From: Methanolinea sp.
GTDB lineage: Archaea > Halobacteriota > Methanomicrobia > Methanomicrobiales > Methanospirillaceae
Assembly (NCBI GenBank): GCA_030055515.1
Contig: JASFYI010000002.1
Coordinates: 313,290-377,289, forward strand
Length of the DNA stretch: 64,000 nucleotides
Direction of reading: 5' to 3'
This document shows, in pieces, positions 3,838-20,989 of this stretch (position 1 is the first letter of the stretch; each line of letters starts with the position of its first letter). The notes beneath the pieces were generated by a model. It was not told the DNA's origin. It made no database searches and saw only the letters and a list, made by a program, of their open reading frames with translations. A program made the position numbers and the translations under genes.

Positions 3838-3914
3838 GCGTCCTTCACCATCCTTTTTCCCGTCTCTCCCCGAGCCCGGTCGTGCCCTCCCGCGGGCGCG
3901 GCAGGAGGGGGAAA

Positions 3915-4080: not shown

Positions 4081-4102
4081 GAGACCCACCTTTCCCCACA
4101 CG

Positions 4103-5497
4103 ATGCGCGAGCCCCCCGTGAAGAAGACCCTCTACTGGTGCGACGCGTGCGGCGTCCCCCTCCTCGCGAAGACCTGCGTGTGTGGCGGGACGGGGAGGGC
4201 GATCCCCCTCCCCGAGCCCTACGACGTCCGCCCCGCGCTCCGGCACGACCGGGAGGTCCTCTCGGCCCTCCTGCGGGAGAGGTTCGGCGACGTCCCGCTC
4301 CCCCGGATCGTCCTCCTCAGCAAGGCGGGGGGGCCTGACCGGACCGAGCTCGTCATCGCCCGCGGGGAACGGTTCGGGTGGCTCTCGTTCGACCCGGTCG
4401 CCCGGGAGTTCCGGTTCGACATCGCGGCCGGCGGGATCCCCTCCGTCCTCCCGCACGCGACGCGCGGGGTGGTCACGCTCGAGGACGCGGTCGCGCCGGG
4501 GAGCGCGCTCCCCGCGGGGAGGCTCGGGGGCAAGAGGGTCAGGGTCCGGACGGACGAGCCCGACGGGACGGTCATCGTGCGGTACAGGGGGCGTGCGGGG
4601 ACGGGCGTCCTCCGGGAGGGGTACCTCAGGGTGAGGGAGCTCCTCCCCCTCCGCGGCCCGCCCGCCCCGGACCCCCCGTGGGAGGAGGCGGTCCGGAGGA
4701 ACGCGCACCACCTGCGGAACCTCGAGCGGCACGCGGTCCGCGCGATCCGGCAGCACGCCCGCGACCGGCCGCACGTGAACGTCTCGTTCTCCGGCGGGAA
4801 GGACAGCACCGCCGTCCTCGCGCTCGCCCGGAAGGCGGGGGTCACGGACGCGTTCTTCATCGACACGGGCCTTGAGTTCCCCGAGACCCTCGCGTTCGTG
4901 AGACAGCAGGGGATCCGGACGGTCCTCCGAGGCGGGGACTTCTGGAGCGCCGCCGAGAGGGACGGGCCCCCCACGAAGGACCGGCGGTGGTGCTGCGACC
5001 TCCTCAAGCAGGCGCCCCTCCGCGAGTACATCGCCCGGCAGGGCCCGACCCTCACGGTGCAGGGCAACAGGTGGTACGAGTCGAGGAACAGGGCGGAGCT
5101 CGCGCTCGTCCGCGAGAACCCCGCGATCCCCCTCCAGTGCACCCTCTCGCCGATCCGGAACTGGAGGGCCCTTGAGGTCTTCATGTACCTCTGGTGGCGC
5201 GAAATCCCGTACAACCCCCTCTACGACCTCGGGTTCGAGAGGATCGGGTGCTACGTCTGCCCCGCGATGCTGGAAGCAGAGGCCGAGCGCCTCGCCGAGG
5301 TCCACCCCGACCTCTCCGCCCGGTGGACCCGGTTCCTCGAGCGGTGGGCACGTTCCCGCGGGCTCCCCCCCGCCTACGTCCGCTGCGGCCTGTGGCGGTG
5401 GGAGACGCTCCCGCCCAAGATGCGGGAGCTCTGCAGGGTGCACGGGATCGCGGGGGGCAGGACACCCCGGGCGGCGCCCGCCCGGCAGGGAGGATGA
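4103..5497 (+). CDS. PAPS reductase-family PP-loop protein with N-terminal zinc ribbon
   Basis: 464 aa. The N-terminus has a zinc-ribbon pattern (WCDACGV...TCVCGG, residues about 12-30). A middle region around 140-190 looks PUA-like. The C-terminal half is an adenine-nucleotide alpha-hydrolase of the PAPS reductase family, with PP-loop VSFSGGKDSTAV near residue 229, RRWCCDLLK, and a terminal GCYVCPA. Archaeal members are larger than bacterial CysH and their substrate is unsettled. Adenylation-dependent sulfur transfer is more likely here than plain sulfate reduction, an inference from the zinc ribbon and the neighbours. Its stop codon overlaps the first of several ATG codons of the cysteine desulfurase gene, so the two are probably translated together. 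Confidence 0.85.
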   Translation: MREPPVKKTLYWCDACGVPLLAKTCVCGGTGRAIPLPEPYDVRPALRHDREVLSALLRERFGDVPLPRIVLLSKAGGPDRTELVIARGERFGWLSFDPVAREFRFDIAAGGIPSVLPHATRGVVTLEDAVAPGSALPAGRLGGKRVRVRTDEPDGTVIVRYRGRAGTGVLREGYLRVRELLPLRGPPAPDPPWEEAVRRNAHHLRNLERHAVRAIRQHARDRPHVNVSFSGGKDSTAVLALARKAGVTDAFFIDTGLEFPETLAFVRQQGIRTVLRGGDFWSAAERDGPPTKDRRWCCDLLKQAPLREYIARQGPTLTVQGNRWYESRNRAELALVRENPAIPLQCTLSPIRNWRALEVFMYLWWREIPYNPLYDLGFERIGCYVCPAMLEAEAERLAEVHPDLSARWTRFLERWARSRGLPPAYVRCGLWRWETLPPKMRELCRVHGIAGGRTPRAAPARQGG

Positions 5498-5502
5498 TGC
5501 GA

Positions 5503-6684
5503 ATGGACACGGAAAGGATCCGGAAGGATTTCCCCCTCGTCTCGGAGGCGATCTACCTTGACAGCGCGTCGACCAGCCTCTCGCCCGAGCCCGTCCTCGC
5601 GGCGATGCTCGCGTTCGAGCGGCACTACCGGGCAAACGTCGGCCGTGGCGTCCACAGGCTTTGCCGCCGCGCGACGGAGGAGTATGCCGCTGCCCACGAG
5701 AAGGTCGCCCGCTTCATCCGGGGCGAGGGCGGGGTCACGGTCTTCACCAAGAACACGACAGAGGCGATCAACGCAGTCGCCCGGGGCCTCGGGTTCGGGG
5801 CGGGCGACCGCGTCGTGACGACCATCCTCGAGCACCACTCCAACCTCCTCCCCTGGATGCGGTTGCGGGAGCGGGGGGTCGATCTCAGGATCGTCGGGCT
5901 CCGGGAGGACTACACCCCCGACCTTGACGCCCTCGCGGAGGAGGTCTCCCGCGGCGCGCGGCTCGTCGCCATCACGCACGCCTCGAACGTGCTCGGGGTC
6001 ATCACCCCCGTCGAGGAGGTGGCGCGGATCTGCAAAGAGGCGGGGGCGCTCCTCCTCGTCGACGGGTCGCAGTCGGTCCCGCACCTCCCGGTCGACGCCC
6101 GGCGGCTCGGCGCGGATTTCCTCTGCTTCTCCGGGCACAAGATGCTCGGGCCGACGGGGACGGGCGTCCTCTGGATGCGCGAGCCGACCATCCCCCCCTC
6201 GGACGTCGGGGGCGGGATCGTCGAGACGGTGACGGAGGAAGGGTACACGCTCGCCGGGGGATACGCGCGGTACGAGGCCGGGACGCCGCACATCGCCGGC
6301 GGGATCGGCCTTGGGGCGGCAGTCGACTACCTCGAGCGGGCCGGCAGGGATGCCGCGAGGGAGCACGAGGAGAGGCTCGCGACCCGGCTGATCGGGGGGC
6401 TCTCCCGCCTCCCGGGCGTCCGGGTCTACGCACCCCCTGACCCCGCGCGGCGGATCGGGGTCGTCTCGTTCACGGTCGAGGGCGTCCACCCGCACGAGGT
6501 CGCACGGCGCCTCGACGCGGAGGGAAATATCATGGTCCGGTCCGGGCACCACTGCTGCATGCCGCTCATGACCCGGCTCGGCCTCCGCGACGGGACGGTC
6601 CGGGCGAGCCTGTACATCTACAACACGGCAGGAGAGGTGGACGCCCTCGTCGAGGCGGTCGGGAGGATCGCGGGGAGAGCCTGA
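5503..6684 (+). CDS. Cysteine desulfurase, SufS/class V aminotransferase type
   Basis: 393 aa, the normal length for the family. It is a PLP enzyme that removes sulfur from cysteine as a persulfide for Fe-S clusters and thio-cofactors. LCFSGHKMLGPTGTG contains the PLP-binding lysine. RSGHHCCMPLM near the C-terminus contains the active-site cysteine in the SufS-type context. GVHRLCRRATEEY and KNTTEAIN are further family blocks. Three in-frame ATGs cluster at 5494, 5497 and 5503. The last is preferred because GGGAGG at 5488-5493 then sits nine bases away; the first would overlap the upstream stop. Together with the PP-loop gene before it and NadA (an Fe-S enzyme) after it, it probably supplies sulfur locally. 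Confidence 0.9.
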   Translation: MDTERIRKDFPLVSEAIYLDSASTSLSPEPVLAAMLAFERHYRANVGRGVHRLCRRATEEYAAAHEKVARFIRGEGGVTVFTKNTTEAINAVARGLGFGAGDRVVTTILEHHSNLLPWMRLRERGVDLRIVGLREDYTPDLDALAEEVSRGARLVAITHASNVLGVITPVEEVARICKEAGALLLVDGSQSVPHLPVDARRLGADFLCFSGHKMLGPTGTGVLWMREPTIPPSDVGGGIVETVTEEGYTLAGGYARYEAGTPHIAGGIGLGAAVDYLERAGRDAAREHEERLATRLIGGLSRLPGVRVYAPPDPARRIGVVSFTVEGVHPHEVARRLDAEGNIMVRSGHHCCMPLMTRLGLRDGTVRASLYIYNTAGEVDALVEAVGRIAGRA

Positions 6685-6799
6685 ACCGGCGCGTGCGCGC
6701 CGACCGGAATCCTTACCAGCCCTGACTCTATATTCTCTAGGCAACCTCCACGGCGACCCCGGGGCCTTGATCCGGCCCGCGGGGCGGGAGGGACGCCCC

Positions 6800-7711
6800 A
6801 TGACCGCCGACCGCTCGATACGGGACGAGATCTCGGCACTCAAGGAGGAACGCGGCGCCGTCATCCTCGCGCACAACTACCAGGTCCCCGAGGTCCAGGA
6901 CATCGCCGACCTCGTCGGGGACTCGCTCGAGCTCGCGCGGGCCGCGGTCTCGATGGACTGCGAGGCGATCGTCTTCTGCGGCGTCGACTTCATGGCAGAG
7001 ACCGCGGCCATCCTCTCGCCGGGAAAGACCGTCCTCCACCCCGTCCGCGACGCCTGCTGCCCGATGGCCGCGATGGTCACCGCGGACGCTCTCTCCCGGT
7101 TCGCCGCGCGGTACCCGGGGGCGGCGGTCGTCGCCTACGTGAACACGACGGCGGAGGTGAAGGCGGCAAGCGACATCTGCTGCACCTCGGCGAACGCCGT
7201 CCGCGTCGTCCGGTCCCTCCCGCACGAGAGGGTCATCTTCGTCCCCGACAGGAACCTCGCGGCCTGGGTCGCCCGGCACACGGACAAGGAGATCATCCCC
7301 TGGGACGGGTACTGCATCGTCCACGAGCAGTACACCGCGGCCGACGTCCTGCGGGAGAAGGCCCTCCACCCGCACGCAGAGGTCCTCGTCCACCCGGAGT
7401 GCAGGCCCGAGGTGATCGACCTCTCCGACCACGTCCTCTCGACGTCCGGGATCATCCGGCACGTCTGCGCGAAAGGGCAGGGCGAGTACATCATCGGGAC
7501 GGAGACGGGGATCATCCACCAGGTGGAGAGGCGGTGCCCGGGCGCCCGGTGCATCCCCCTCTCCCGCACCGCCGTCTGCGAGAACATGAAGAAGATCACG
7601 CTCCGGCACGTCCGCGACGCCCTCGCCCGGATGGAGCCGCGGGTCACGGTCCCGCCGGACGTCGCGTCCCGCGCGCGGCGGGCGATCGAGCGGATGCTCG
7701 CGGTCGGCTGA
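6800..7711 (+). CDS. nadA: Quinolinate synthase NadA
   Basis: 303 aa, the usual archaeal length. NadA condenses iminoaspartate with dihydroxyacetone phosphate to quinolinate in NAD synthesis, using a [4Fe-4S] cluster. Family blocks seen are ILAHNYQVPEVQDIADLVGDS at the N-terminus, VFCGVDFMAETA, YVNTTAEVKA, FVPDRNLA, HPEC and the cysteine-rich RCPGARCIPLSRTAVCENMKK. The ATG at 6800 is preferred to upstream TTG codons because GGGAGGGA lies about eight bases before it. A TATA-like CTCTATATTC at about 6727-6736 suggests its own promoter. NadB/aspartate dehydrogenase and NadC are not in the window. Confidence 0.95.
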   Translation: MTADRSIRDEISALKEERGAVILAHNYQVPEVQDIADLVGDSLELARAAVSMDCEAIVFCGVDFMAETAAILSPGKTVLHPVRDACCPMAAMVTADALSRFAARYPGAAVVAYVNTTAEVKAASDICCTSANAVRVVRSLPHERVIFVPDRNLAAWVARHTDKEIIPWDGYCIVHEQYTAADVLREKALHPHAEVLVHPECRPEVIDLSDHVLSTSGIIRHVCAKGQGEYIIGTETGIIHQVERRCPGARCIPLSRTAVCENMKKITLRHVRDALARMEPRVTVPPDVASRARRAIERMLAVG

Positions 7712-7717
7712 TTCCCC

Positions 7718-8629
7718 TCACGTGCCGCGGCGCGCCCTCTTCTGCCTTCCCGCCTTCCTCTCTCCCTCCCCGCCGAGGACCTCGTCCATGCTCCCCGACC
7801 GGAAGCCCGCAAGGTCGAGCGTGACGTACGGGATCCCGAGGTCCCGGAGCCTCGCCGCGACCTCCCCCGCCCGGGCGGCGAGCCGCGGGATCTCCCCCTC
7901 CCCCACCTCTATCCGCGCGAGGGGCCCGTGCAGCCTCACGCGGACGGGGGAGAACCCCTCGCCCCGGAGGATCTCCTCGGCCGCCTCGATGGTCCGGAGC
8001 CTCTCCTCGGTGATCTCCTCGCCGTAGGGGATGCGCGTCGCGAGGCAGGAGTCGGAGGGCATGTCCCAGAAGGAGTAGCCCCTCTCCCGCGCGAGAGCCC
8101 TCACGTCCTCCTTCGCGAGCCCCGCCTCGGCGAGCGGGTGGACGATCCCCGCCTCGTCCGCGGCCCGGATCCCCGGCCGGCGCGCGGAGAGGTCCGAGAC
8201 CGTGACGCCGTCGGCGACCGTCGGGATCCCGAGCTCCCTCGCCCGGTCAAGGAGGATCCGGGCGTCCTCCCTCCTGCAGAGGTAGCACCTGTCCGGCGGG
8301 TTGGACGCGATCGCGGGGGGGATCCCGCTCTTCGTGACGACCTCGAGCGAAAGGGAGAGCTCCCGGGCGAGGCGGAGGGCGGTTTCCCCCGCGTGCCGGG
8401 GGACGAGGGGGCTCTCGATGAAGACGCACCGCGCGTTCTTCCCGAGGACCTCCGTCGCGACCGCCGCGAGGAAGGCGCTGTCCACTCCCCCCGAGTAGGA
8501 GACGAGCATCGCGCCCCTCTCCCGGATCTTCTCGCAGAGGGCGCGGTACTTCCTCCGGAGCCCCCTCGGCAGCCCCGCGCCCTCCCCCTTCACGCCGCTC
8601 CCCGTGCCGGCGCCTTCGCCTGCGTCCAC
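7718..8629 (-). CDS. larE: LarE-type ATP-dependent sulfur transferase (three-cysteine form)
   Basis: 303 aa, starting at a GTG with GGGAGG upstream. The N-type PP-loop SGGVDS is at residues 46-51. C115 and C118 (RCYLCRRED) and C195 (SDSCLATRIPYG) are the family's cysteines. In the single-cysteine type the protein gives up its own cysteine sulfur to the nickel-pincer cofactor precursor. Members with all three cysteines bind a [4Fe-4S] cluster and are thought to use an external sulfur atom. This one has all three. LarA, LarB and LarC are not seen nearby, so the real acceptor may differ. It converges on nadA with only six bases between the stops. Confidence 0.88.
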   Translation of the reverse strand: MDAGEGAGTGSGVKGEGAGLPRGLRRKYRALCEKIRERGAMLVSYSGGVDSAFLAAVATEVLGKNARCVFIESPLVPRHAGETALRLARELSLSLEVVTKSGIPPAIASNPPDRCYLCRREDARILLDRARELGIPTVADGVTVSDLSARRPGIRAADEAGIVHPLAEAGLAKEDVRALARERGYSFWDMPSDSCLATRIPYGEEITEERLRTIEAAEEILRGEGFSPVRVRLHGPLARIEVGEGEIPRLAARAGEVAARLRDLGIPYVTLDLAGFRSGSMDEVLGGEGERKAGRQKRARRGT

Positions 8630-8754
8630 TCCCGTCCCTCCCCTGCCGCTCTCACAATCGTGGATCGCCCGCGGGACGGGAAAAAGGTTCGTTTCCGCCG
8701 GCGGGCACCCTTAAATCCCCGCACGATAATACGCAACCATAGGAGTGGCGACCC

Positions 8755-8886
8755 GTGTGCCTCACGTCCCTGATCTCGCGGCTCCTCGGGCGGAAGGAGG
8801 GCCCTCCACGCGGGAGGGAGAGGGGAGAAGAGGAGGATGAGGAGGAAGAGGAGCTCCAGGAGCTCGTCGCGCTCGAGATCGTGTGA
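8755..8886 (+). CDS. Small acidic protein (43 aa)
   Basis: GTG-TGC-CTC opens a 43-codon frame behind AGGAG at 8741-8745. A TATA-like TTAAAT at 8711-8716 lies about 40 bp upstream. The product begins MCLTSLISRLLGRKEG and continues with an almost uninterrupted run of glutamates, ending ELQELVALEIV. No family is recognised. The promoter and ribosome-site context argue for a real gene. The low-complexity acidic run argues for caution. Confidence 0.45.
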   Translation: MCLTSLISRLLGRKEGPPRGRERGEEEDEEEEELQELVALEIV

Positions 8887-8977
8887 GGGGGGTGGATTGG
8901 GGAGAATGTTGCAGTCTTCCTCCTAGAGAGAAACCGAAAGGGAAAATCCGTACCGGTGCGGGTTTCCTCTCCCGGTG

Positions 8978-9004
8978 TTAAATATTTGGGTAATTTTTAT
9001 AAGA
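8978..9004 (+). promoter_or_regulatory. TATA-box promoter in front of the helicase cassette
   Basis: An AT-rich patch contains TAAATATTTGGG and TTTTTATAAG (8991-9000), the only such patch between 8900 and 9140. It would start transcription near 9025 and leave a leader of about 115 nt before the GTG at 9143. Two short frames (MSRRIGMPLVVR from 9022 and a 29-codon frame from 9057) lie in that leader. Confidence 0.45.
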
Positions 9005-9142
9005 ATCCGGTCCTACCGACTATGAGCAGGCGAATCGGAATGCCTTTGGTCGTTCGATGAGGTGGAATACTCAAAAATATCCTATCCGTGCCCCACTTTC
9101 AGGGGAAGAGTGGGGTACCGGCCACTTTTTCCGGCGTGACGG

Positions 9143-12082
9143 GTGATCCTTTTGGTCCTCGGGAGGGAGGCCCCGGAGATCGCAGCGCTGTTCTCACTCC
9201 TTGAGAAAAGGAATCTCAACGCATTCTTTGAACTCTTCCCTCGCGCCCTCGCGGAACACGGGCGTGACCTCCTTTGCGGGGAGGCAGGGAGGGAACTTGC
9301 AAATTCCATAGTCCCCCACTTCAGGGGCGAGAACGGGAAGGACGTACAGGAGGCCTTCATCGAGATCCTCTCGCGGGGAGTCCCGGACACTGCAGAACGT
9401 ATCGCCTTCTACGAGATCATCGCCGGTGCCCTCGGTGCGTCTGACGCGGGCGGGAAGGATGAGTTCCTCGCCACGCTCTGCCTCGTCGAGCAGTCTCGGG
9501 AGATCGTGCGGTTCGCGTACCGTCTCGCGGATCCCTTCGGGGTAGCCCACTACCTCGCCGTCTTCTCTTTCACGACGGGGATCATCCCTGCGCGCCGCGG
9601 GGATCACGGGGACCCACGCGACGCGTTACGCAGGCCGCGCGTCACATTCACCGCGGGGAGGGAGGTCCGCCTGGTAATCCCCCCGCAATTCTTCACTTCA
9701 CACCCGGACAATGGGGAGGTCCGCGTGACTCTCCTCTCCGGCTCTCATGTCCACGCGGAGAGCTTTACACTCGACCTGTACGCGGCAGGTGGCGGGGTTG
9801 TGACAGGGATGCGGGAGGTGGAGATCCCCCCGTGGGAAGGGACTCTCTCCGTGCAGCTTGAGCATGCATGCGGTGTCCTGCGCGCGTGGGAGATTCCCGG
9901 CATGACGGAAAAGAGACCGTTCCTCGCCTTCAGGGCACGCCGGCGCACCCTCGTCACCGATTCCGAGATCCCAAGGAAGGAGACATGGATTGTCTCCCCG
10001 TACCCTGTTCTGTACGCGGAAGGTCTCCTCGAGAGGGGAAGAGTCGCAGGTCTCTGGAGAGACTTTCAGTTTTCCCTCATCCAACCCCTCCCGCACTGCG
10101 AGTATTACCTCTCTTTCGCGAATGGCGGGATGTGCCGGATACCCTTCAAGTCAGCAGGGCGGTCCCCGTCCCTCGCCGGGACATTGGTGGAGTACGCCAT
10201 ATTCGATCCCCCACTCCCGTGGTACACCGATGTCCCCCGCCTCATCGTCCCCATGGCCCCCTATCCCGATGAAGCGGCGGGGACGATCGAGATATTCCGG
10301 GAGTATGGGACGGGGGTCGAAGAACCTCTCGCGTCGTTCTCCACGGGCACCGCGGGGGAATACGCCCGCATGGACGACCGGATCAATGCCCTCGTCATCG
10401 ATCTCTCCCACGGTGACCTCCTCGGGACGTCTGCCGCGGGCCTTTACATCGCCCGGTTCTCCGCGTGGGAGGCTCCCCTCCGGTTCGGCATCGCCCCGGG
10501 CCTTCGGGTCTTCTTCCACCCCCCGGTGTTCCTGCCCGGCGGGGAGAATCGCTCGCTCGAGGTGGAGGTGGAGGGACCGGACATCGTCGAGCCGCTCTCC
10601 CCCTGCGAGGTGGTGAGGGAGGGACTCTTCCGCCTCCCTGCCCCGACGGATCCCAATCCCGCCGCGTCGACGGTGGCGTTCCGACTCGTGTACCGGGACG
10701 CGCAACGGGGGTCTCCCACAAGCCTCACTGTCCGCATCAAGCTACCCATCGTGCGCTGCACCCTCGCGGGTCTCTCCGGGGGTCACGAACCCATTCCCCT
10801 CGGAGGAGGTGTAACACTCATGAGGGAGACGCTTGAGGATGCCCTCGGGACCGCAGAAGTCATCGTCGAGCGACCAAGGGAGCTTTTGGGCAACTGGATA
10901 CTCTCGGTCGGTGAGCAGGAATCGCGCCGGAACACCGTCGACGACGAGGGGAACCTCCATTTCCCCCTCGAGGTGTTCAGGGAAGTCATCCTCGCGCACC
11001 GAAACGGCACGCTCCCTGTCACCCTCGCGCACGAGGGCATAAACGACGGTGTCCGGACCCAGGTCGACATCCTGTCCCTCGTTGACTGGACAGTGGAGTA
11101 CACGGACTCCTCTGTGGAATTCCGCGAGGGTAGGGTGACCGTCACTGTCTCGTGGAGGGAGCGGGGGAGGTCAGGGGAGGCAACGTTCGTCCTCACCCGG
11201 AATGAGTTAGGGATACCCTCCGGGGAAGAACTGAGCGAGGGGGTACGCGTCGAGCCTTCGGGGACCCAGTGGAAGGAGTACTCGGCCAGTTTCACGTTTC
11301 CCTTCGCCGACACCCAGATCGAGTACACGATGGGATTTGCCCGCGGGGATTCGGGGGAGGGGGAGTGGGCTCTCACGCGCGCACTGCAGTTTCCCCAGAA
11401 GATCCGCGTCGGGTCGGATCCCCTCGCGATCGCAGAGTGGTATTATAGGCGCGGGGATATTCTTGCATCCTTGAAATGGCTCAAGAATGTCTGCCGTGAT
11501 CACCCGCGGTATGCAGATGCCCTCGTCCTGCGCGCGCGCTGCCTCTCCTCCCTCGCCGACGGTGCACCGACTCAAGAGGAGGTGAAGGGGAGACTCACGG
11601 AGGCGATCGGGGTCCTCGCAGATGCACTCGCGACGGGGGCCGATGGCTCGGCCCGCGTCCTCAAGGCGCACCTGCACAACAGGCTCGGCATCCTCGGGGA
11701 CGGTGATTGCACCCCGTTCCGCAAGGCAGAGGAGATTCTCGGGGAACTCCTCGGCAGGAACCCCCACGATATCCCGGCTCTCGCCGAGTACGGCATCGCG
11801 CTCGCGGGGATGGGGAGGATCCTCGAGGCAGCACACATCTCCCGGTACCTCGATTACCTTGACCCCGGGGAGACGATTCCAGAGACCGCGTACGCGAAGG
11901 CGGTGATACTCAGGCTCTTTGCGGAACGGGTGAAGGGAAAGGTAAGTGAAAGGGATCAAAAGGAGATCGGGAGACTCCTCGCGAGGGCCCGTGAACTCGG
12001 GGGGTGCGGTACAGTCCGGACGTCGGCACCCGCGGGAGCGAGGGAGTGCGCCGGAGAATCTGACCAGCGGGAACCAAAGTGA
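9143..12082 (+). CDS. Large protein of unknown function, first gene of the helicase cassette
   Basis: 979 aa. No family was recognised. Residues 1-150 look helical (ALFSLLEKRNLNAFFELFPRALAEHG). Residues about 165-750 look mostly beta-stranded with Ig-like alternation. Residues about 755-960 form a helical, TPR-like solenoid (DPLAIAEWYYRRGDILASLKWLKNVCRDHPRYADALVLRARCL...). No nuclease, ATPase or membrane motif is visible. The GTG at 9143 is the first start after an in-frame stop and lacks a good ribosome site; GTGA overlaps the stop of a 29-codon frame upstream, so the true 5' end is uncertain. It is followed 15 bp later by the first helicase gene. Its place suggests a sensor or scaffold for the two helicases, by analogy with the large accessory proteins of Druantia systems (inference). 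Confidence 0.75.
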   Translation: MILLVLGREAPEIAALFSLLEKRNLNAFFELFPRALAEHGRDLLCGEAGRELANSIVPHFRGENGKDVQEAFIEILSRGVPDTAERIAFYEIIAGALGASDAGGKDEFLATLCLVEQSREIVRFAYRLADPFGVAHYLAVFSFTTGIIPARRGDHGDPRDALRRPRVTFTAGREVRLVIPPQFFTSHPDNGEVRVTLLSGSHVHAESFTLDLYAAGGGVVTGMREVEIPPWEGTLSVQLEHACGVLRAWEIPGMTEKRPFLAFRARRRTLVTDSEIPRKETWIVSPYPVLYAEGLLERGRVAGLWRDFQFSLIQPLPHCEYYLSFANGGMCRIPFKSAGRSPSLAGTLVEYAIFDPPLPWYTDVPRLIVPMAPYPDEAAGTIEIFREYGTGVEEPLASFSTGTAGEYARMDDRINALVIDLSHGDLLGTSAAGLYIARFSAWEAPLRFGIAPGLRVFFHPPVFLPGGENRSLEVEVEGPDIVEPLSPCEVVREGLFRLPAPTDPNPAASTVAFRLVYRDAQRGSPTSLTVRIKLPIVRCTLAGLSGGHEPIPLGGGVTLMRETLEDALGTAEVIVERPRELLGNWILSVGEQESRRNTVDDEGNLHFPLEVFREVILAHRNGTLPVTLAHEGINDGVRTQVDILSLVDWTVEYTDSSVEFREGRVTVTVSWRERGRSGEATFVLTRNELGIPSGEELSEGVRVEPSGTQWKEYSASFTFPFADTQIEYTMGFARGDSGEGEWALTRALQFPQKIRVGSDPLAIAEWYYRRGDILASLKWLKNVCRDHPRYADALVLRARCLSSLADGAPTQEEVKGRLTEAIGVLADALATGADGSARVLKAHLHNRLGILGDGDCTPFRKAEEILGELLGRNPHDIPALAEYGIALAGMGRILEAAHISRYLDYLDPGETIPETAYAKAVILRLFAERVKGKVSERDQKEIGRLLARARELGGCGTVRTSAPAGARECAGESDQREPK

Positions 12083-12097
12083 CGTCGGAGGTGGTCC

Positions 12098-14617
12098 ATG
12101 GAGGGGCTGTGTGATTACTCGTTTGTCCGGTGGAAGAATGGCTTTGCGACGTTTGAACAGGCGACGAACCCCTCCGGTTTCGAGCCGTACGAGCACCAGG
12201 TGGAAGTCTGGAAGGAGATGGACAATTACTTCAAAAAGTCAAGGTACGGGATTCTCTGGGTGCCGACCGGAGGGGGCAAGACGGTCATCGCCGCGAAGTG
12301 GCTCCTCGAGGAGAGAATCGACAAGGGCTACAAGGTGATATGGTTCGCGCACATGGGCATCCTCCTCAAACAGGCGGCAGAGACCTTCCGCGCCGTCCTC
12401 CAGAAGTACCCTGCCCTGAAGGGGAAGAGATCGATCCGGTGTGCCCTCGTCCTCTCGCGTAATGTTGGGGGGACCGGGTGGAGGGAGGTCGCGAAGGACT
12501 CCTGCGACGTCGTGTTCGCCTCACCGTTCTCCTCGGCGCGGTACATGAACGACATCGCATCCTTCGTGAAGACGGCGGAGAAGGGCGTGTTCGTGGTCGT
12601 GGACGAGGTCCAGCACGCGTACGCGCCCACGTACAGGAAGATCCTCGAGAACCTCAGGCAGATGGAGAAGGTGTTCTTCCTCGGGATGAGCGCGACGCCC
12701 TACCGGATGGCAAAGGACGAGTCGGTCGGCCTGTGGAAGTTGTTCGACGCGTACGACCAGAAGTCGGGGAAGATGAAGGTGATCGCGCGCGTGCGGCAGG
12801 AGACCCTCATCGAGAAGAATATCCTCGCTAAACCGCAATTCCACGACCGCCACACGGAGATCGAGCCCGAGGTCCCCGGGGATGAGCAGCTCCTCGACAG
12901 GTTCCACGAGCTCTCGAGCGCGGCACTCCAGTCCCTCTCCGAGAACGAGGCGAGGAACAGGCTGATCTGCGAGGAGTACCTCAGGAACTACAGGGAGAAG
13001 AAGGATATCGATATCGAGAGGTACGGGAAGACGCTCATCTTCACGCCCACGATCGAGGGGAACAGGAGACTCTACGAGGTGTTCACCCGGATGCTCCGGG
13101 AGAACGGCTACCACAATGTCATCCGCGTCGCTTACATCGACAGCACCGTCCCGGAGAGCGAGAGAGCGCGCATCATCGAGAAATTCCGCACCCCGTGGTC
13201 TAAGAACTCCCACGACTCCATTGACATCCTCATCAACGTGGAGATGTGCACCGAGGGGTTCGATGCCCCCCTCACGAGGACGGTCTTCCTCGCACGCCCG
13301 ACGAGCTCGGACTCCCTCGTCCGCCAGATGATAGGGAGGGCAATGCGGGGACCCCGGGCCGGGGGTAACGCGGTCTGCCACGTCGTCCGGTTCGTGGACC
13401 GTCTCCCCGAGGGATACGACCTGATAGACCCCGAGCAGGTGATAGAGGAGGAGAGGAGGGAGGAACCGCCATTCAGCCTCGTCCCGCGCGAGGTCCTCAA
13501 AGTGTTCCGGACGGCAGTACAATCCCTCGCAGGGAGGGTCTCGTCCCTCCTCCCGTTCAGGTTCAGCTACATCCCGATAGGCTGGTACTACCTGCAGCCC
13601 GATTCCGCTCGTTCTGACGGGAACTACGGGGAGGGCAGAGAGGACGACGAGGCAGGCATCGACGGTGTCTACATCGCCGTCCTCCCCCACCAAAAGAGGG
13701 GATTCTCGAGACTCTTTTCTTCCATTGCACACAACGGCCCAGAAATCTTTAGGGAGAGAAAGTACGGGGATCTCGTGAGGAACTACTTTTACGATTGCCC
13801 CGACCCCCTCCCTGACGAGGACACGCTCAAAGAATTCATCGCCGCTTTCCCCTCCAAGAAGAAATCGAGAGCTTTCGCCAGCGAGGAAGAAATCTTCGTC
13901 CAGTTCAAAGACAGGAGTGCCATCTCCCCGTGGGCCCTCGCCAGGGAAGACGGGTGTTCCCCTCCTGACGCATCGCGGTTCTACGAGAAATACCCCTTCT
14001 TAAAAGAGTTCTACCCCCGCGACGCGGAACTCCTCCACGACATTGCCCTCTGCGGGCTGTATAGGACGTTGGATGAGCGCACTCCCCCCGGGATCGATCC
14101 CGGGAAGTGCGAGGAATTCGTCAAGGCCAGCATCCACGAGGAGAGGGTGATCCCCATGAAGGAGATCCTCGATGACCTCGCGAAGGAATCCCCTGACATT
14201 GCGAGACTTCCCGGTGCCGCGTTGGTCTCCCCGGTCGAGTTCCGGTGGGACAAAGAGGGTTTGCCCCCCGCGCCCCTCGGGTTCTGCCGATTCTCAGACG
14301 GCAAGGTGGAGCTCCACCTCGCCGACGTGCTCCAGAAAAAGGCAGTCCCCCGGGCGGTAAGGGAGTACGCGATCTCCCACCTCCTCGCCCACGCCGCGGC
14401 CCCCTACGCGCACTACGGCCCCGTCCACTCCGCGAGGGAGCGGCAGTTCCGGCCGACGAGGACCGCGGCGAGGCAATTCCTCAGCCTCCCCGTGTGGGAG
14501 GACAGGGAGGTCGTCGCGGAGGACGGCGCGTGGGCGAGGGTGTGCCGCGCGTACCTCACCCTCGTGCTCCGCGTTGCCATGGAAGTGGAGACCCCGATTC
14601 TCGACGAGTTCCTATGA
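12098..14617 (+). CDS. SF2 helicase, type III restriction-subunit-like, with a degenerate metallopeptidase-like C-terminus
   Basis: 839 aa. The ATG at 12098 has GGAGGTGG in front. An N-terminal YEHQVEVW acts as Q-motif region. Walker A is WVPTGGGKTVIAA (about 54-66), motif II DEVQHAYAP (169-177), motif III GMSATPYRM (about 196-204), and motif VI RQMIGRAMRGP. This is the two-RecA-domain core of restriction-type translocases. Near the C-terminus, HLLAH at 761-765 followed by H772 and H777 resembles the HExxH...H zinc site of SprT/YgjP-like peptidases, but with Leu in place of the catalytic Glu, so it is probably inactive. It sits between the 979-aa protein and the DUF1998 helicase (43 bp to the next start), an arrangement typical of a defence operon. 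Confidence 0.85.
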   Translation: MEGLCDYSFVRWKNGFATFEQATNPSGFEPYEHQVEVWKEMDNYFKKSRYGILWVPTGGGKTVIAAKWLLEERIDKGYKVIWFAHMGILLKQAAETFRAVLQKYPALKGKRSIRCALVLSRNVGGTGWREVAKDSCDVVFASPFSSARYMNDIASFVKTAEKGVFVVVDEVQHAYAPTYRKILENLRQMEKVFFLGMSATPYRMAKDESVGLWKLFDAYDQKSGKMKVIARVRQETLIEKNILAKPQFHDRHTEIEPEVPGDEQLLDRFHELSSAALQSLSENEARNRLICEEYLRNYREKKDIDIERYGKTLIFTPTIEGNRRLYEVFTRMLRENGYHNVIRVAYIDSTVPESERARIIEKFRTPWSKNSHDSIDILINVEMCTEGFDAPLTRTVFLARPTSSDSLVRQMIGRAMRGPRAGGNAVCHVVRFVDRLPEGYDLIDPEQVIEEERREEPPFSLVPREVLKVFRTAVQSLAGRVSSLLPFRFSYIPIGWYYLQPDSARSDGNYGEGREDDEAGIDGVYIAVLPHQKRGFSRLFSSIAHNGPEIFRERKYGDLVRNYFYDCPDPLPDEDTLKEFIAAFPSKKKSRAFASEEEIFVQFKDRSAISPWALAREDGCSPPDASRFYEKYPFLKEFYPRDAELLHDIALCGLYRTLDERTPPGIDPGKCEEFVKASIHEERVIPMKEILDDLAKESPDIARLPGAALVSPVEFRWDKEGLPPAPLGFCRFSDGKVELHLADVLQKKAVPRAVREYAISHLLAHAAAPYAHYGPVHSARERQFRPTRTAARQFLSLPVWEDREVVAEDGAWARVCRAYLTLVLRVAMEVETPILDEFL

Positions 14618-14660
14618 AGGGACCCATGAGAGATCCAATCCCGCACACGGATGGTGGATA

Positions 14661-17600
14661 ATGTCACTCGACCCGTTCACAACATCCTCTGACCTTTCCC
14701 GCCGGTACATCTCGTACATGAAGAGCACGTTCTTCATCAGGGAGAAAAAAATACGGGAGCAGTTTGAAGATGCCCTTTCTAAGGCAAGATTCGTGAAGGG
14801 GCCGCTCCTCGAGGTTACCCCTCCATTTACGAAGGGGGCTTCATTGACATCCCTCATCGCGGAGGGTGTCCTCAGCCGTGAGTTCGAAGTTCTCGGCCTT
14901 GAGAAACTCCCCCGCACGCTCTACGCCCACCAGGAGAGGGCGATCCGCCGCCTCGTCACCGGGAAGAGGAACGCCATCGTCGCGACGGGGACAGGGAGCG
15001 GAAAGACCGAGACATTCCTCATCCCCATCCTCAATGCGCTCATGAGGGAGAGAGAGAACGGGACCCTTGGCCCCGGAGTCCGGGCCCTCCTCCTCTACCC
15101 CATGAATGCCCTCGTCAACGACCAGGTGCAGAGGTTGCGGGAGCTCCTCGCGGGATACCCGCACATCACCTTCGGGCAGTATACCGGGGATACCCCGGAA
15201 GAGGAGGAACAAGCGAGGGAGAATTACATTCACGAGCACGGGTCCCACCCCCTCCCTCACGAGCTCATCTCCCGGGAGCGGATGAGGAGGACTCCCCCCC
15301 ACATCCTCCTCACGAACTACGCGATGCTCGAGTACCTCCTGTTGAGGCCAAGTGACATGGACCTCTTTGAGGGGGAGCACGCGGGGAAGTGGGCATTCAT
15401 CGTTCTGGATGAGGCCCATACCTACACAGGTGCGAAAGGGATCGAGATCGCGATGCTCCTGCGGAGGCTGAAGAACAGGGTCCTGCGGGACGGGCGGAGG
15501 CTCCAGTGTATCGGGACGAGCGCGACGCTCGCCCGTGGGGCATCCGACTTCCCGGGGATCGTCCGGTTTGCCCGTGACCTCTTCGGCGAGCCGTTCGAAC
15601 CCGAGGACATCATCCTCGGGGAGAGAGTCGATCCCCCTGTCCCGGCGGTGACAATCTCGCTCCGGCCGGAACGGATCCTGGAGTGGGCGAGGGAGATCGA
15701 GTCGGGCACGGAACCGGACATTGCCACGGCACGGAGGGTTCTCGAACAGGACGGGATCCCCCCCGGTCTCCTCGGAGAATGGGCAAAGTCGTCGGGGGGT
15801 TCGTTCCGCGCCTTCCTCTCCCACGTGCTCACGCACGAGTCGACTATCGTCACGCTCCGGGAATTCCTGCGTACAAATGATACCCCCGCCCTCGAGGACG
15901 TCGCGGCGCACCTCTTCCCCGGTGATCCGCGCCAAAACGAACTCACGAGATCCCTCCTCTCCCTCGCGGTCCGTGCGAGGGAGTCGGGCACGGAAAACCC
16001 GCTGATCCCAGCACGGTACCACTTCTTCGTGAGGGCGATCGAGGGATCGTTCATCGCGTTCACGCCGGACCCCATCGTCCAGATCGAGCCTGTCCAGGAC
16101 GTGAAGACACCGGCAGGGACGTTCCGCGCATTCGAGATGGCCGTCTGTGAGAATTGCGGTGCCGTGTATCTCGTCGGGAACAGGAGCAACGATGTCCTCA
16201 CGCACCCCCACCCGATATTCTATGACTATGCCCCCGCCGAGTACTATCTGCTCTCCCCCGCGACCACGCTCGGAGGGGAGGACGAGGACGAAGAGGCCCT
16301 CGCCGCGGCTCGCCTGAGCACCGGCGAAGAGTGGATCCTCTGCGCGAGGTGCGGCAAGATCAAGAACGCGAAGATCCTCAAGGACTCCTGCCCGTGCATC
16401 CAGTCGCACGCCATCCATCTCACCAAGGTGAACGCGAGGGAGAGGGGTGTGCACACCTGCCTTGCGTGCGGAAAGACCAATTCGGCCCGCCCGATCGTCC
16501 GGAGGGTCGTCACCGGGAGCGACGCCATGGGATCGGTCCTCGTGACCGAACTCTTCGCGCACATCCCCCTCCGCGAGATCAGGGTGAAGAAGGAGCCGCG
16601 CGTGGCCGACCCCGAGTGGGGTGTTGTGACAGCGGAGGGGGCAGATGAACCGCGCACGGCGAGGAGAGCGAGGAAACTGCTCGTCTTCTCGGACAGCCGG
16701 CAGGACGCTGCCTTCTTCGCGCCATACCTCATGAGGACGTACCACCAGATTCAAAAGAGGGCCCTCCTCCTCCAGATTCTCAAGAAATACCAAAAGAGCA
16801 TCATTGCGAACCAGTGGTCTTTGAATGATTTCGTATTGTCGCTCGTGCTCGAGATAAAAACCCTCTCCCTCTGCGATCACGACCGTTCCAACCAGGAGAT
16901 CGAGAACATCGCGTGGAAGTGGCTGCTCGACGAGTTCTTCTCGTTCGAGGACCGCATCAGCCTTGCGCAGCTTGGTCTCCTCGACTTCATGCCAGTGAGA
17001 CCACCCGGTATCGGCATGTTCAGAATCCCGCTCAAGGAGAGCCCATGGAACCTCTCTGACGACGAGATCTGGACCCTTCTTGCCATCCTCCTCACCACGC
17101 TCAAGAAGAAGAGAGCCTTCCACTTGCCTGAGACGGTGCGCGGGGACCGCGACATCCTCGGACCAAGCGGGGCACCCGCCTATGTCCGGCTCAAAACACG
17201 GGGGACGCGGACACAGATTTCCACGTGGGTGCCTCAGGGCCAGAAAACGAACCAGAGGCTTGACTTCATCACCCGCCTCGCCGCGCGGCTCGGGGTTACC
17301 CTCCCCGAATCGGGGGCGGGGAGCGCGCGGGACATCCTCGAAAAACTCTGGACACACGTCCTTTCGCCGGGAAGTCCCGGATCGCATTTCGAGAGGTTCT
17401 TTACGGACCAGAACCTCGGGACCGAGGGGATCGCGTACCAGCTCTCTCTCTCCCCGTGGGTTGCTCGCTCCCCCCTCCTCGACAGTGAGACGGTGTGGTA
17501 CAGGTGCGACACGTGCCACAAGGTCACCCCCCACAACCTCCGCGGGGTCTGCCCGACGTTCCGGTGCCCGGGGGCCCTCCAAAAGATAAACCCCTCGGAG

Positions 17601-19508
17601 GTATTCGGGGAGAACCACTACTTCCAGCTCTACACGGGGACCACGCCGAAACGGTTCCTCGCGAGGGAGCACACGGCCCAGCTCGCGCGGTCCTACGCGA
17701 CGAAGGTCCAGTCCGACTTCATCAACGGCGAGGTGGACGTCCTCTCGTGCTCGACGACGTTCGAGCTTGGCGTGGACGTCGGGGAGTTAGAATCGGTCTT
17801 CTTACGCAACATGCCCCCCCGGCCCGCAAACTACATCCAGAGGGCGGGGAGGGCCGGGAGGAGGACGGACTCGACCGCGTTCTGCCTCACGTTCTGCCAG
17901 CTCAAGTCCCACGACTTCCACTACTTTCAGGATCCGGCACAGATGGTCCGGGGGAAGGTATCCCCGCCGTTCTTCGATATCAGGAACGAGAAGATCGTGC
18001 GGCGCCACATGCTCGCAATGGCCCTCTCCGCGTTCTGGAGGGCCCCGGAGTACACGCGTTTCTTCGGGACGGTGAACGAGTTCTTCTTCGGCGAGGGTCC
18101 GACTGGCCCCGAGCTCTTCCGGGAGTTCCTCAGGAAAAAACCGGCGGCGCTCCTCTCCGCGTTCCGCGAGGTGGTCCCCGAGGGCCTCGCGTACCTCCTC
18201 GACGACGCGGACGGGGAGTGGCGGTTCGCCGCGGAGATGTTCGACCCGGAGAGGGGGCCGTTCTCCCTCGCGACGAGGGAGATCCGCAGTGACATCGAGG
18301 CGCTCGGGAGGGCCAGGAGAGACCTCTTCCAGAAGGGCAAGAAGACCGACCACATCCTCAACATCCAGAACATGCTCCTTGGCAAGCGGGTCATCGACTA
18401 CCTCGCGTCGCGCAACGTCCTGCCGAAGTACGGGTTCCCCGTGGACGTCGTCGAGCTCGCGGTCTACTCCCGCGAAGGGGCCAACCTCGACCTCACGCGC
18501 GACATGAAGATCGCCCTCTCGGAGTACGCGCCCGGAGGCGAGGTGGTCGCGGACGGGAAACTGTGGAAATCCCGGTACGTGAAGAGGCTGACCCGTTTCG
18601 AAATGGATCTCGAGCAGAAGTACTACGTCATCTGCCAGAATTGCAGCTGGTACAAGACGTCGTTTAAAGAGGAGGACATCCCGGATGTCTGCGAGGCGTG
18701 CGAGACCCCCCTCAATCTCCCACGCAGGCTGATCAAGCCTGCTTTCGGTTTCATCGCGGACTGGGATGGTTCGTCCCCTGTGGGGATGAAGAGACCGGAG
18801 AGGACGTACTCAACGAGGGTCTTCTACACGGGGGAGAGCGAGGAGAAGGTCACTATCCCCCTCCCCCTCCCCGACGGCCGAACCCGCCTGATCGCAACGA
18901 ACGCGGAGAACGGGCGCTTTGGGATCCTCAATTTCGGGAAGAACCGGGCCGGTTTCAAGATCTGTAGCCTCTGCGGGTACACGGTGCCGGGCGACAAGGA
19001 CGTGCCAAAGACGCACAAGACGCCGTTTGGCGAGCAGTGTCGCGGCGGCGTGTTCGAGACGTTCGACCTCGGCCACGAGTACCTGACGGACATGGTCAAG
19101 CTGGTCTTTGAGAATTACGACCCCGCCGTCCCGAACGCGGAGGGGATCGGGTTCTGGCAGTCCCTCCTCTACGGCATCCTCGACGGCGTCTCCGACTGCC
19201 TCGACATCGAGAGGAACGACATCGACGGCTGCATCTACTTCGAGAGGGGGAGGAGGACGGCACTCGTCCTCTTCGACGCGGTGCCGGGCGGCGCGGGGCA
19301 CGTCCAGAGGATCGCAAACGAGGGCAGGCTCATCGAGGTGCTCGAGAGGACCCTTTGGAACCTCTCGCGGTGCGCGTGCGGGGGCGAGGAGGGCGATGCG
19401 AGCTGCTACGGGTGCCTGCGGAACTACGAGAACCAGTACTGCCACCCGAACCTGAAGAGGGCCCCTGTCATCCGGTTTCTCGCCCGTTGCCTGGAGAAGA
19501 CGACGTAG
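14661..19508 (+). CDS. Giant DEAD/DEAH helicase with C-terminal DUF1998 (DruE/DrmA-like)
   Basis: 1615 aa. The frame is open further upstream, but ATG-TCA-CTC at 14661 has GGTGGA seven bases before it and gives the usual family N-terminus MSLDPFTTSSDLSRRY. Walker A is ATGTGSGKTE at 108-117, then LYPMNALVNDQ, TNYAMLEYLLLRP, DEAHTYTGAKG near 248, GTSATLA near 283, SDSRQDAAFF, ELGVDVG, and YIQRAGRAGRR near 1060. Several CxxC pairs lie in the middle insert. The C-terminal DUF1998 has DAVPGGAGHVQRI and the cysteine cluster CACGG...SCYGCLRNYENQYCH. This domain order is that of Druantia DruE and related DISARM helicases. It probably loads on and remodels invader DNA; no nuclease domain is seen. Confidence 0.88.
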   Translation: MSLDPFTTSSDLSRRYISYMKSTFFIREKKIREQFEDALSKARFVKGPLLEVTPPFTKGASLTSLIAEGVLSREFEVLGLEKLPRTLYAHQERAIRRLVTGKRNAIVATGTGSGKTETFLIPILNALMRERENGTLGPGVRALLLYPMNALVNDQVQRLRELLAGYPHITFGQYTGDTPEEEEQARENYIHEHGSHPLPHELISRERMRRTPPHILLTNYAMLEYLLLRPSDMDLFEGEHAGKWAFIVLDEAHTYTGAKGIEIAMLLRRLKNRVLRDGRRLQCIGTSATLARGASDFPGIVRFARDLFGEPFEPEDIILGERVDPPVPAVTISLRPERILEWAREIESGTEPDIATARRVLEQDGIPPGLLGEWAKSSGGSFRAFLSHVLTHESTIVTLREFLRTNDTPALEDVAAHLFPGDPRQNELTRSLLSLAVRARESGTENPLIPARYHFFVRAIEGSFIAFTPDPIVQIEPVQDVKTPAGTFRAFEMAVCENCGAVYLVGNRSNDVLTHPHPIFYDYAPAEYYLLSPATTLGGEDEDEEALAAARLSTGEEWILCARCGKIKNAKILKDSCPCIQSHAIHLTKVNARERGVHTCLACGKTNSARPIVRRVVTGSDAMGSVLVTELFAHIPLREIRVKKEPRVADPEWGVVTAEGADEPRTARRARKLLVFSDSRQDAAFFAPYLMRTYHQIQKRALLLQILKKYQKSIIANQWSLNDFVLSLVLEIKTLSLCDHDRSNQEIENIAWKWLLDEFFSFEDRISLAQLGLLDFMPVRPPGIGMFRIPLKESPWNLSDDEIWTLLAILLTTLKKKRAFHLPETVRGDRDILGPSGAPAYVRLKTRGTRTQISTWVPQGQKTNQRLDFITRLAARLGVTLPESGAGSARDILEKLWTHVLSPGSPGSHFERFFTDQNLGTEGIAYQLSLSPWVARSPLLDSETVWYRCDTCHKVTPHNLRGVCPTFRCPGALQKINPSEVFGENHYFQLYTGTTPKRFLAREHTAQLARSYATKVQSDFINGEVDVLSCSTTFELGVDVGELESVFLRNMPPRPANYIQRAGRAGRRTDSTAFCLTFCQLKSHDFHYFQDPAQMVRGKVSPPFFDIRNEKIVRRHMLAMALSAFWRAPEYTRFFGTVNEFFFGEGPTGPELFREFLRKKPAALLSAFREVVPEGLAYLLDDADGEWRFAAEMFDPERGPFSLATREIRSDIEALGRARRDLFQKGKKTDHILNIQNMLLGKRVIDYLASRNVLPKYGFPVDVVELAVYSREGANLDLTRDMKIALSEYAPGGEVVADGKLWKSRYVKRLTRFEMDLEQKYYVICQNCSWYKTSFKEEDIPDVCEACETPLNLPRRLIKPAFGFIADWDGSSPVGMKRPERTYSTRVFYTGESEEKVTIPLPLPDGRTRLIATNAENGRFGILNFGKNRAGFKICSLCGYTVPGDKDVPKTHKTPFGEQCRGGVFETFDLGHEYLTDMVKLVFENYDPAVPNAEGIGFWQSLLYGILDGVSDCLDIERNDIDGCIYFERGRRTALVLFDAVPGGAGHVQRIANEGRLIEVLERTLWNLSRCACGGEEGDASCYGCLRNYENQYCHPNLKRAPVIRFLARCLEKTT

Positions 19509-19591: not shown

Positions 19592-20989
19592 ATGTTCCCG
19601 CGGAGAGCCGCCGCCCTGTGCCTCGCCTGCCTCTTTCTCTCCCTCCCTGCCGCCGCGGCGACCGGGCCCGGGTGGACGTTCTCTCCCCCCCGCGGGAAGA
19701 TCTCGGGGTTCGCGGTCTCGGGCGACGGCGCGTACACCGCGGTCGGGACGACGATGGGCCGGCTCGTCCTCCTCGACGGATCAGGCGCGGTCCTCTGGGA
19801 GAAGCAGTTCGCAGGACCGCTCGCGGTCGCCCTCGACGGGGCGGGGACGATGGTGGTCGCGGCGGAATCGGAGTCCCGCGAGAAGATGAAGGGCACGCTC
19901 CGGGGCTTTACCACGGGCGGCGCCCCCCTCTGGGTCACCCACCCGGGGTACATCTGCGGCTTTGCGGCCGCGGCGGACCTCTCGCGCACCGCCGTCGGGA
20001 CATCACAGGGGGAGGTCGTGGTCTACGACCGCGAGGGGTGTGTCGCGTGGCGCGAGGCCGACCTCTTCAAGCCGTGGAGCACAAGCTGCGTCGCCCTCTC
20101 CCCCGACGGGAAGTTCCTCGCCTACGCGCTCCACGAGGCGACGCCCGCCCTGTACCTCGTCGACCTCTCGTCCCACAGGAAGAAGGCACTCAAGGTGCAC
20201 TCCGCGACGTACGGGAGCCCGATCCGGGCCGCGCGGTTCTCTGCCGACGGTAAGACCCTCCTCTGCGTCCAGGGCGAGGGGAGCACGGACACGGTCGCGC
20301 TCTTCTCGACGGGGGGCACGCTCCTCTGGAAACGGTCCCTCCCGCGCGTGACCGCCGCGGAGTTCGCGGACGCGGGCGAGGCGATCGTCGCCGGGTCGGC
20401 AGACGGGACCGTGCGCGTCCTCGACAAGGGGGGCAACGTCACCCTCTCGCGGGACGTGGGGAGCCCTGTCCTCTCCCTCGCGGTCACGCCGGACGGGGCC
20501 GCGATCCTCGCGGGGACGGAGAGGGACGGGATCGTCGCCCTCTCCCGCGGGAACGAGACGCTCTGGCAGTGTGTCCCCGACCGGTTCCCGTGGGCCGCGG
20601 TCACCGCCCTCGCCGTCGCGGGGAACGGCACGCGGGTCGTCGCGGTCGTGAACGGGAACGAGGTGATCGCGCTCTCGCGGGAGAACGACGCGGGACGCGG
20701 GGGCGACCCGGCCGGAGGCACGGGGAGCGGGGAGGAGGAGGGATCGCCCGCTAAGAAGGACAACGTGGCGGCGCGAGAACCGGTCCCGTCCGGGGATGGC
20801 GGGGAAGTCACGAACGCGACGGGGACACCGTCCCCGGGCCCGGGGGTCGGCGCGGGGGAGAGGAGGGGGTGTCTGCTCCCCGGACTCCCGGGGATCACGA
20901 GGGATACACCCGCAAACAGGAGTGACCTCTTCGCAACCCTCGTCGCGGGGCTCGAGGGGGGACTCGGCGGCCGCCCGCGGGGGAACTGA
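19592..20989 (+). CDS. Secreted beta-propeller (WD40/PQQ-like) protein
   Basis: 465 aa. It starts with a classical signal peptide (MFPRRAAALCLACLFLSLPAAAAT). Residues about 25-365 contain seven to eight blade repeats of the form 'DG..LLAGT..G.V.VL...G...W', for example SPDGKFLAYALHE, SADGKTLLCVQGE and TPDGAAILAGTERDG. The C-terminal hundred residues are low-complexity Gly/Ser/Pro/Glu linker. Such extracytoplasmic propellers are common in Methanomicrobia; their ligands are mostly unknown. The start is the first ATG that gives the signal peptide. It lies 83 bp behind the helicase cassette on the same strand but shows no functional link. Confidence 0.82.
   Translation: MFPRRAAALCLACLFLSLPAAAATGPGWTFSPPRGKISGFAVSGDGAYTAVGTTMGRLVLLDGSGAVLWEKQFAGPLAVALDGAGTMVVAAESESREKMKGTLRGFTTGGAPLWVTHPGYICGFAAAADLSRTAVGTSQGEVVVYDREGCVAWREADLFKPWSTSCVALSPDGKFLAYALHEATPALYLVDLSSHRKKALKVHSATYGSPIRAARFSADGKTLLCVQGEGSTDTVALFSTGGTLLWKRSLPRVTAAEFADAGEAIVAGSADGTVRVLDKGGNVTLSRDVGSPVLSLAVTPDGAAILAGTERDGIVALSRGNETLWQCVPDRFPWAAVTALAVAGNGTRVVAVVNGNEVIALSRENDAGRGGDPAGGTGSGEEEGSPAKKDNVAAREPVPSGDGGEVTNATGTPSPGPGVGAGERRGCLLPGLPGITRDTPANRSDLFATLVAGLEGGLGGRPRGN

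What the first reader, a model, noticed from the sequence alone, without database searches (positions are those of the whole stretch)
9057..19508. Three-gene helicase cassette that may be an undescribed defence system
A 979-aa protein of unknown family is followed by a restriction-type SF2 helicase and a 1615-aa DUF1998 helicase with close spacing and one apparent promoter. Large DUF1998 helicases are the core of Druantia (DruE) and DISARM, but the other known partners (DruA-D, DruH motifs, DrmB/C, methylase, PLD nuclease) are not recognisable here. No nuclease is visible. The combination of two different SF2 helicases with a beta-rich/TPR-like protein could be a new variant.
Basis: partly seen in the sequence, partly recalled or inferred. 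Interest (0 to 1): 0.75.

Follow-up and report, generated by a model that had tools for sequence, protein, structure and literature searches.

The report
Archaeal Druantia III-like cassette plus helicase
Three archaeal genes form a probable antivirus cassette: two are a hidden, divergent version of the known Druantia type III sensor-helicase pair, and the third is an extra DNA helicase slotted between them, which I found in no other such locus.

Summary
The three ORFs are real, intact and tightly spaced, but they are not an undescribed system as a whole. The 1615-aa helicase is a YprA/DruE-type protein in the nuclease-less branch that Bell et al. (PMC12458937) call 'Druantia type III-like'. 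The 979-aa protein belongs to a family that sits directly upstream of such helicases in 69 of 78 testable loci across bacteria and archaea (74 if a few genes may lie between). PADLOC does not recognise this family, but profile comparison links it to DruH, the Druantia III sensor, with a shared GG[IL]P-type N-terminal motif and an Ig-like array. Genes 1 and 3 are therefore probably a cryptic DruH-DruE pair. Gene 2, a RadD/ResIII-type helicase, is found with this pair nowhere else; its relatives are solo helicases carrying an HNH nuclease that the window copy lacks. The cassette has lower GC3 than its flanks and lies 4 kb from a large type I-E CRISPR array. Most likely mechanism (inferred from Druantia III work): the DruH-like protein senses a viral component, and the DruE-like helicase loads on viral replication DNA and blocks it; the second helicase is an accessory of untested role. 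New variant of a known kind.

The parts
8994..9003 (+). TATA-like sequence upstream of gene 1 (candidate archaeal promoter)
   Evidence: sequence, by eye; not tested
9143..12082 (+). gene 1: 979-aa divergent DruH-like protein (probable infection sensor)
   Evidence: found at E=2e-24 by a model built from 14 other members of the DruE-upstream family; the family is remotely similar to DruH
9374..9385 (+). gene 1 RGVP motif (residues 78-81), counterpart of the GG[IL]P motif of relatives and of DruH G136/G137
   Evidence: DruH G136A/G137A loses defence (PMC13192584)
9620..11347 (+). gene 1 Ig-like beta-sandwich array (about residues 160-735)
   Evidence: AlphaFold2 model and Foldseek
11405..12022 (+). 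gene 1 helical, TPR-like C-terminal region (about residues 755-960)
   Evidence: weak Pfam TPR matches; low-confidence helices
12098..14617 (+). gene 2: 839-aa RadD/ResIII-type SF2 helicase without the HNH domain of its relatives
14661..19508 (+). gene 3: 1615-aa DruE-type (YprA family) helicase, no C-terminal nuclease
   Evidence: PADLOC DruE 644 bits; Pfam DEAD, Helicase_C, MZB; tree
19176..19418 (+). gene 3 MZB/DUF1998 zinc-binding domain (residues 1506-1586), 29 residues from the C-terminus
   Evidence: cysteines intact

Best explanation
A Druantia type III-like antiviral module with an inserted accessory helicase. Gene 1 is a divergent DruH-like sensor: an N-terminal regulatory domain, an Ig-like recognition array and a helical C-terminus. 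On infection it recognises a viral component and licenses gene 3. Gene 3, a DruE-type helicase/translocase, loads on single-stranded or branched viral replication DNA and stalls or exposes it. Gene 3 has no nuclease domain, so cutting would have to come from gene 1 (E. coli DruH shows nuclease activity) or from host enzymes, or the block is by helicase action alone. Gene 2 is a later insertion, a RadD-like helicase without the HNH nuclease of its relatives; if it takes part, it most likely helps to load on or remodel the same DNA. Shown here: gene structure, family membership, pairing of genes 1 and 3 across taxa, absence of a nuclease domain, absence of gene 2 elsewhere. Inferred: the defence function, sensing, DNA target and the role of gene 2.
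For: Gene 3 matches PADLOC DruE1 at 644 bits and DruE3 at 546. In the tree it falls in a clade (support 0.998) beside Druantia I plus classical Druantia III, away from ARMADA. The gene-1 family is immediately upstream of the DruE-type gene in 69 loci and further upstream in 5; 4 of 78 testable loci lack it. Gene-1 family against DruH: E 2.4e-5 (probability 75%) for the two alignments; Marinobacter DruH alone E 9.3e-7 (probability 91%), colinear over about 470 columns; scores 57-63 against at most 25 for shuffled, reversed or unrelated controls. Shared motif near residue 135; its DruH counterpart G136/G137 is essential. DruH contains three Ig-like domains (PMC13192584); gene 1 models as an Ig-like array. 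Cassette GC3 is 0.77-0.85 against 0.96 upstream and 0.91 downstream; a type I-E CRISPR-Cas locus is adjacent.
Against: PADLOC's DruH models match neither gene 1 nor any of 29 other family members tested. Gene 1 itself is poorly conserved, its N-terminal domain is about 65 residues shorter than in relatives, and it has RGVP rather than GGIP. Five of six DruH sequences taken alone give no significant match. DruH's catalytic residues were not checked. Nothing tests function in this archaeon.
Confidence: 0.7

Rival explanations
1. The gene-1 family is not homologous to DruH; it is an unrelated Ig-array sensor that takes the same place upstream of DruE-type helicases, so the branch is a separate defence system that shares only the helicase.
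For: PADLOC DruH models miss it; single-sequence DruH comparisons are mostly insignificant; Ig-like arrays can converge.
Against: Colinear match over N-terminal domain and Ig-like region with Marinobacter DruH (E 9.3e-7) and profile E 2.4e-5, far above controls; shared GG[IL]P motif at the same position.
Confidence: 0.2
2. Gene 2 is an unrelated passenger that happened to insert between the two core genes; only genes 1 and 3 form the system.
For: No gene-2 homologue among the genes of 85 related loci; its relatives are solo HNH-helicases.
Against: Intact frame and helicase motifs, gaps of 15 and 43 nt with Shine-Dalgarno-like sites. Other Druantia III-like loci also gain genes inside the pair or just after it, and the related archaeal locus L040 has an XPB-like SF2 helicase overlapping the end of the DruE-type gene.
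Confidence: 0.5
3. A DNA-repair operon (YprA/MrfA-like and RadD-like helicases) with no antiviral role.
For: RadD and MrfA are repair helicases; gene 2 scores 71 bits to the RadD model, far below its cut-off of 720.
Against: Gene 3 sits beside Druantia in the defence branch; patchy distribution, with no gene-1 match in the 12 same-genus genomes searched; foreign composition; CRISPR-Cas neighbour.
Confidence: 0.08

Closest known systems
Druantia type III-like / III-B branch (Bell et al. 2025, PMC12458937)
   Same: DruE-type YprA helicase with fused MZB, most often without C-terminal nuclease; branch separate from classical Druantia III
   Different: an extra RadD-like helicase lies between the two genes; that paper's main text does not mention DruH or RadD, so how it describes the partner is unknown to me
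Druantia type III (DruH-DruE, E. coli; PDB 9tu7-9tuc, 9tud)
   Same: gene order sensor then helicase; DruE homology; Ig-like region and N-terminal GG[IL]P-type motif in the sensor
   Different: E. coli DruE has 2104 aa, gene 3 ends just after MZB at 1615 aa; Bell et al. report C-terminal PLD domains in type III; gene 1 is undetected by DruH models
M. smegmatis 'type III Druantia' (MSMEG_1253-1254, PMC13316683)
   Same: two genes, DruH 1132 aa + DruE 1667 aa, both without canonical nuclease
   Different: I could not obtain its sequence, so whether its DruH is in the gene-1 family is untested
Solo HNH-helicases (Deinococcus, archaeal genomes G078/G374/G410)
   Same: helicase core and the following PF..YIPxGWY region of gene 2
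   Different: they carry a C-terminal HNH domain and have no Druantia neighbours

Membership tests
Druantia type III-like (III-B branch) | DruE-type YprA helicase in the Druantia lineage | tested here: met
   identity of my clade with the published branch is inferred from position and architecture
Druantia type III-like (III-B branch) | no or variable C-terminal nuclease on the helicase | tested here: met
   MZB ends 29 residues from the C-terminus, no nuclease domain; rule
Druantia type III | DruH encoded directly upstream of DruE | tested here: inconclusive
   PADLOC DruH models not met; remote homology supported by profile comparison; gene 2 intervenes
Druantia type III | PLD nuclease domains at the DruE C-terminus | tested here: not met
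   applies to classical type III only
Druantia type III | antiviral activity requiring both proteins | not testable with these tools
   needs a host and a virus
Druantia I/II | DruA-D or DruM/F/G partners | tested here: not met
   no such PADLOC match in genes 1 and 2
DISARM | DrmA and DUF1998 protein DrmB as separate genes, with DrmC | tested here: not met
   MZB is fused to the helicase; DrmA only 59 bits
ARMADA | BrxHII-like helicase + PglX-like methylase; Vsr domain on the YprA helicase | tested here: not met
   gene 2 is RadD-like and gene 3 has no Vsr domain; no methylase among the neighbouring ORFs scanned; tree position
HNH-helicase family (gene 2) | C-terminal HNH nuclease | tested here: not met
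   absent from the protein and from all six frames of 13801-14700

The most novel reading that the evidence does not exclude
A three-component Druantia III-like system in which a nuclease-less RadD-type helicase works with a DruH-like sensor and a nuclease-less DruE-type helicase, so that viral DNA is blocked by two helicases rather than cut; more widely, the pair recruits different accessory enzymes (second helicases, Hsp70-NYN RNase fusions) in different lineages.
Probability: 0.3. Interest if true: 0.62.

Novelty: new variant of a known kind. Interest (0 to 1): 0.45.

Why it matters
It identifies the partner of the nuclease-less Druantia III-like helicases as a very divergent family, probably DruH-related, that PADLOC's models miss, so many such loci, archaeal ones included, may go unnamed by annotation. 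It gives a testable motif (GG[IL]P) shared with DruH, and it shows that this pair takes up accessory genes. If gene 2 matters, this would be a Druantia-type system acting without a recognisable nuclease domain.

Tried and rejected
A genome-contig scan with gene 1 alone found no relative; gene 1 is too divergent for short patterns. PHROGs and NCBIfam gave nothing for gene 1. Gene-2 C-terminus: I suspected a zinc-protease-like fold (HLLAH motif), but Pfam, a PDB sequence search and a single-sequence model (pLDDT 43) gave no support, so dropped. Viral-contig search with gene 2: nothing. Identifying M. smegmatis DruH by gene length and mutated-residue fingerprint failed. Of two early paper searches, the first (ZacA/ZacC) was useless; the second led to the YprA paper. 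DISARM, ARMADA and Druantia I/II were rejected by the membership tests. Foldseek of the gene-1 model against the PDB returned generic Ig/macroglobulin arrays, not diagnostic of DruH.

Full report
Observation. The window lies in G000:C2:313290-377289 of a 1.76-Mb genome whose relatives include an uncultured Methanomicrobiales archaeon (G020, same contig as CAIYHQ010000076.1). The three ORFs are present as described, with gaps of 15 and 43 nt and Shine-Dalgarno-like sites before genes 2 and 3. Helicase motifs are intact: gene 2 GGGK/DEVQ/SAT/QMIGR; gene 3 GSGKT/DEAH/SAT/QRAGRAGR and the MZB cysteines. GC3 is 0.77-0.85 in the cassette, 0.96 in the genes upstream and 0.91 in the gene downstream, which suggests acquisition. 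Genes 1, 2 and 3 each have a single match in the genome.

Gene 3. Pfam finds DEAD, Helicase_C and MZB. PADLOC's best models are DruE1 (644 bits) and DruE3 (546); after the DruE models come SngC, DpdJ, BrxH and DrmA, all at or below 105 bits. The PDB relatives are 9tu7 (E. coli-type DruE, 1.2e-73), 9wae and YprA/MrfA. A tree with reference Druantia I, Druantia III and ARMADA helicases puts it in a large clade (support 0.998) beside Druantia I plus classical Druantia III. Bell et al. describe a distinct Druantia III-like branch whose helicase most often lacks a nuclease. Gene 3 ends 29 residues after MZB.

Gene 1. No library names it. Its direct BLAST match is weak: 23% identity over 140 residues (E 4e-6) to the 1023-aa gene just upstream of the closest gene-3 relative. 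A genome-contig scan with the gene-3 family gave 80 named loci from Clostridia, Bacilli, Chloroflexi, Actinomycetota, Methanosarcinales and others. In most of these, a large gene (550-1640 aa) lies immediately upstream, often overlapping by a few bases. A profile started from the two closest archaeal proteins took in 14 members, and that model, which did not include gene 1, found gene 1 at E=2e-24. In all, 69 of 81 loci have the family adjacent, 5 have it with one to three genes between, 3 are at contig edges and 4 lack it (one contig, L040/L074, is counted twice). The pairing of genes 1 and 3 is therefore a rule, not an accident of this genome.

Is gene 1 a DruH? PADLOC recognises E. coli DruH with ten strong DruH models, but none of 30 members of the gene-1 family. 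Profile-profile comparison with six DruH sequences gives E 2.4e-5, probability 75%, over the Ig-like region. Marinobacter DruH alone gives E 9.3e-7, probability 91%, colinear from the N-terminal domain through the Ig-like region; the other five give no significant match alone. Scores of 57-63 compare with a maximum of 22.7 for 25 column shuffles, 17.8 for the reversed alignment and 25.4 for 42 unrelated proteins; three further proteins in that control set scored higher because they are themselves family members. The N-terminal domains also match (score 29 against 15.5 for 40 shuffles). 'YVTPILxHGGIP' near residue 135 of many family members lines up with 'YLHTLACEGGLP' at residue 135 of DruH, where G136A/G137A abolishes defence (PMC13192584). 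Gene 1 keeps only RGVP and has a shorter N-terminal domain. Its model is an Ig-like array between helical ends (mean pLDDT 67), and DruH too has three Ig-like domains. I read this as remote homology, likely but not proven.

Gene 2. It is a RadD/ResIII-type SF2 helicase. No homologue at E<=1e-5 occurs among the ORFs of the 85 related loci. Relatives are rare in archaea (4 of 249 relatives and 4 of 345 phylum genomes, the window's own genome included); those in Deinococcus and in G078, G374 and G410 stand alone and carry a C-terminal HNH domain (HNH by Pfam, by sequence; neighbours). The window copy has no HNH domain in any frame, and its last 200 residues match nothing. Gains of other genes in or beside the pair recur: three genes, including an Hsp70-NYN RNase fusion, in Streptosporangium and Microbispora; an XPB-like SF2 helicase and a UvrD-like helicase (the latter by reading its sequence) after gene 3 in the related archaeal locus L040; a conserved 566-625-aa gene with a Walker A motif after gene 3 in six, mostly Firmicutes, loci. 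So gene 2 fits a pattern of accessory recruitment, but whether it is needed is untested.

Mechanism. Following DruH-DruE work (PMC13192584, PMC13316683), the gene-1 product would sense a viral component and activate gene 3, which loads on ssDNA-containing viral replication DNA. Without a nuclease domain, the block would be helicase-driven or depend on nuclease activity in gene 1 or on host enzymes. The M. smegmatis system, whose DruH and DruE also lack canonical nucleases, blocks phage DNA circularisation and replication; it is a useful precedent, although its DruH sequence could not be compared here. The type I-E CRISPR array (about 111 repeats) and cas genes next door place the cassette in a small defence island.

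Verdict. Observation confirmed. Interpretation partly supported: a new variant of a known kind, with a hidden DruH-like partner and an unusual inserted helicase.

Noticed in passing
window 23889-31000: Large type I-E CRISPR array (about 111 repeats, GGTTCATCCCCACGCACGTGGGGAACTC, 61-nt period) with Cas7/CT1975, Cse1 and Cas3 genes at 33.6-39.6 kb on the minus strand; the spacer ATCCTCGCGCCTGAATTC... occurs twice, one spacer apart (about 25160 and 25282).
   Followed up: partly
L040/L074 1-12808: Related Methanomicrobiales locus: the DruH-like protein carries an N-terminal WD40 propeller, and the DruE-type gene is followed by an XPB-like helicase (overlapping) and a UvrD-like helicase.
   Followed up: partly
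L070, L090, L130 (about 2000-10000): Actinomycete loci with three genes between the DruH-like and DruE-type genes; in L070 one is an Hsp70-like ATPase fused to a NYN (Zc3h12a-like) RNase domain.
   Followed up: partly
L076, L078, L089, L093, L109, L116: Conserved 566-625-aa Walker-A protein directly after the DruE-type gene; the L078 copy has no PDB sequence relative. Possible third component.
   Followed up: partly
L048, L049, L052: Methanomicrobiales clusters with two large YprA-type helicases close together, one near ARMADA and one in the Druantia III-like clade of the tree.
   Followed up: no
L041 8921-13587: Broken (pseudogene) copy of the gene-3 homologue in a relative, split over several frames.
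   Followed up: no
window 19592-20989: WD40/PQQ-like beta-propeller protein directly downstream of gene 3, with high GC3 (0.91), so probably not part of the cassette.
   Followed up: no
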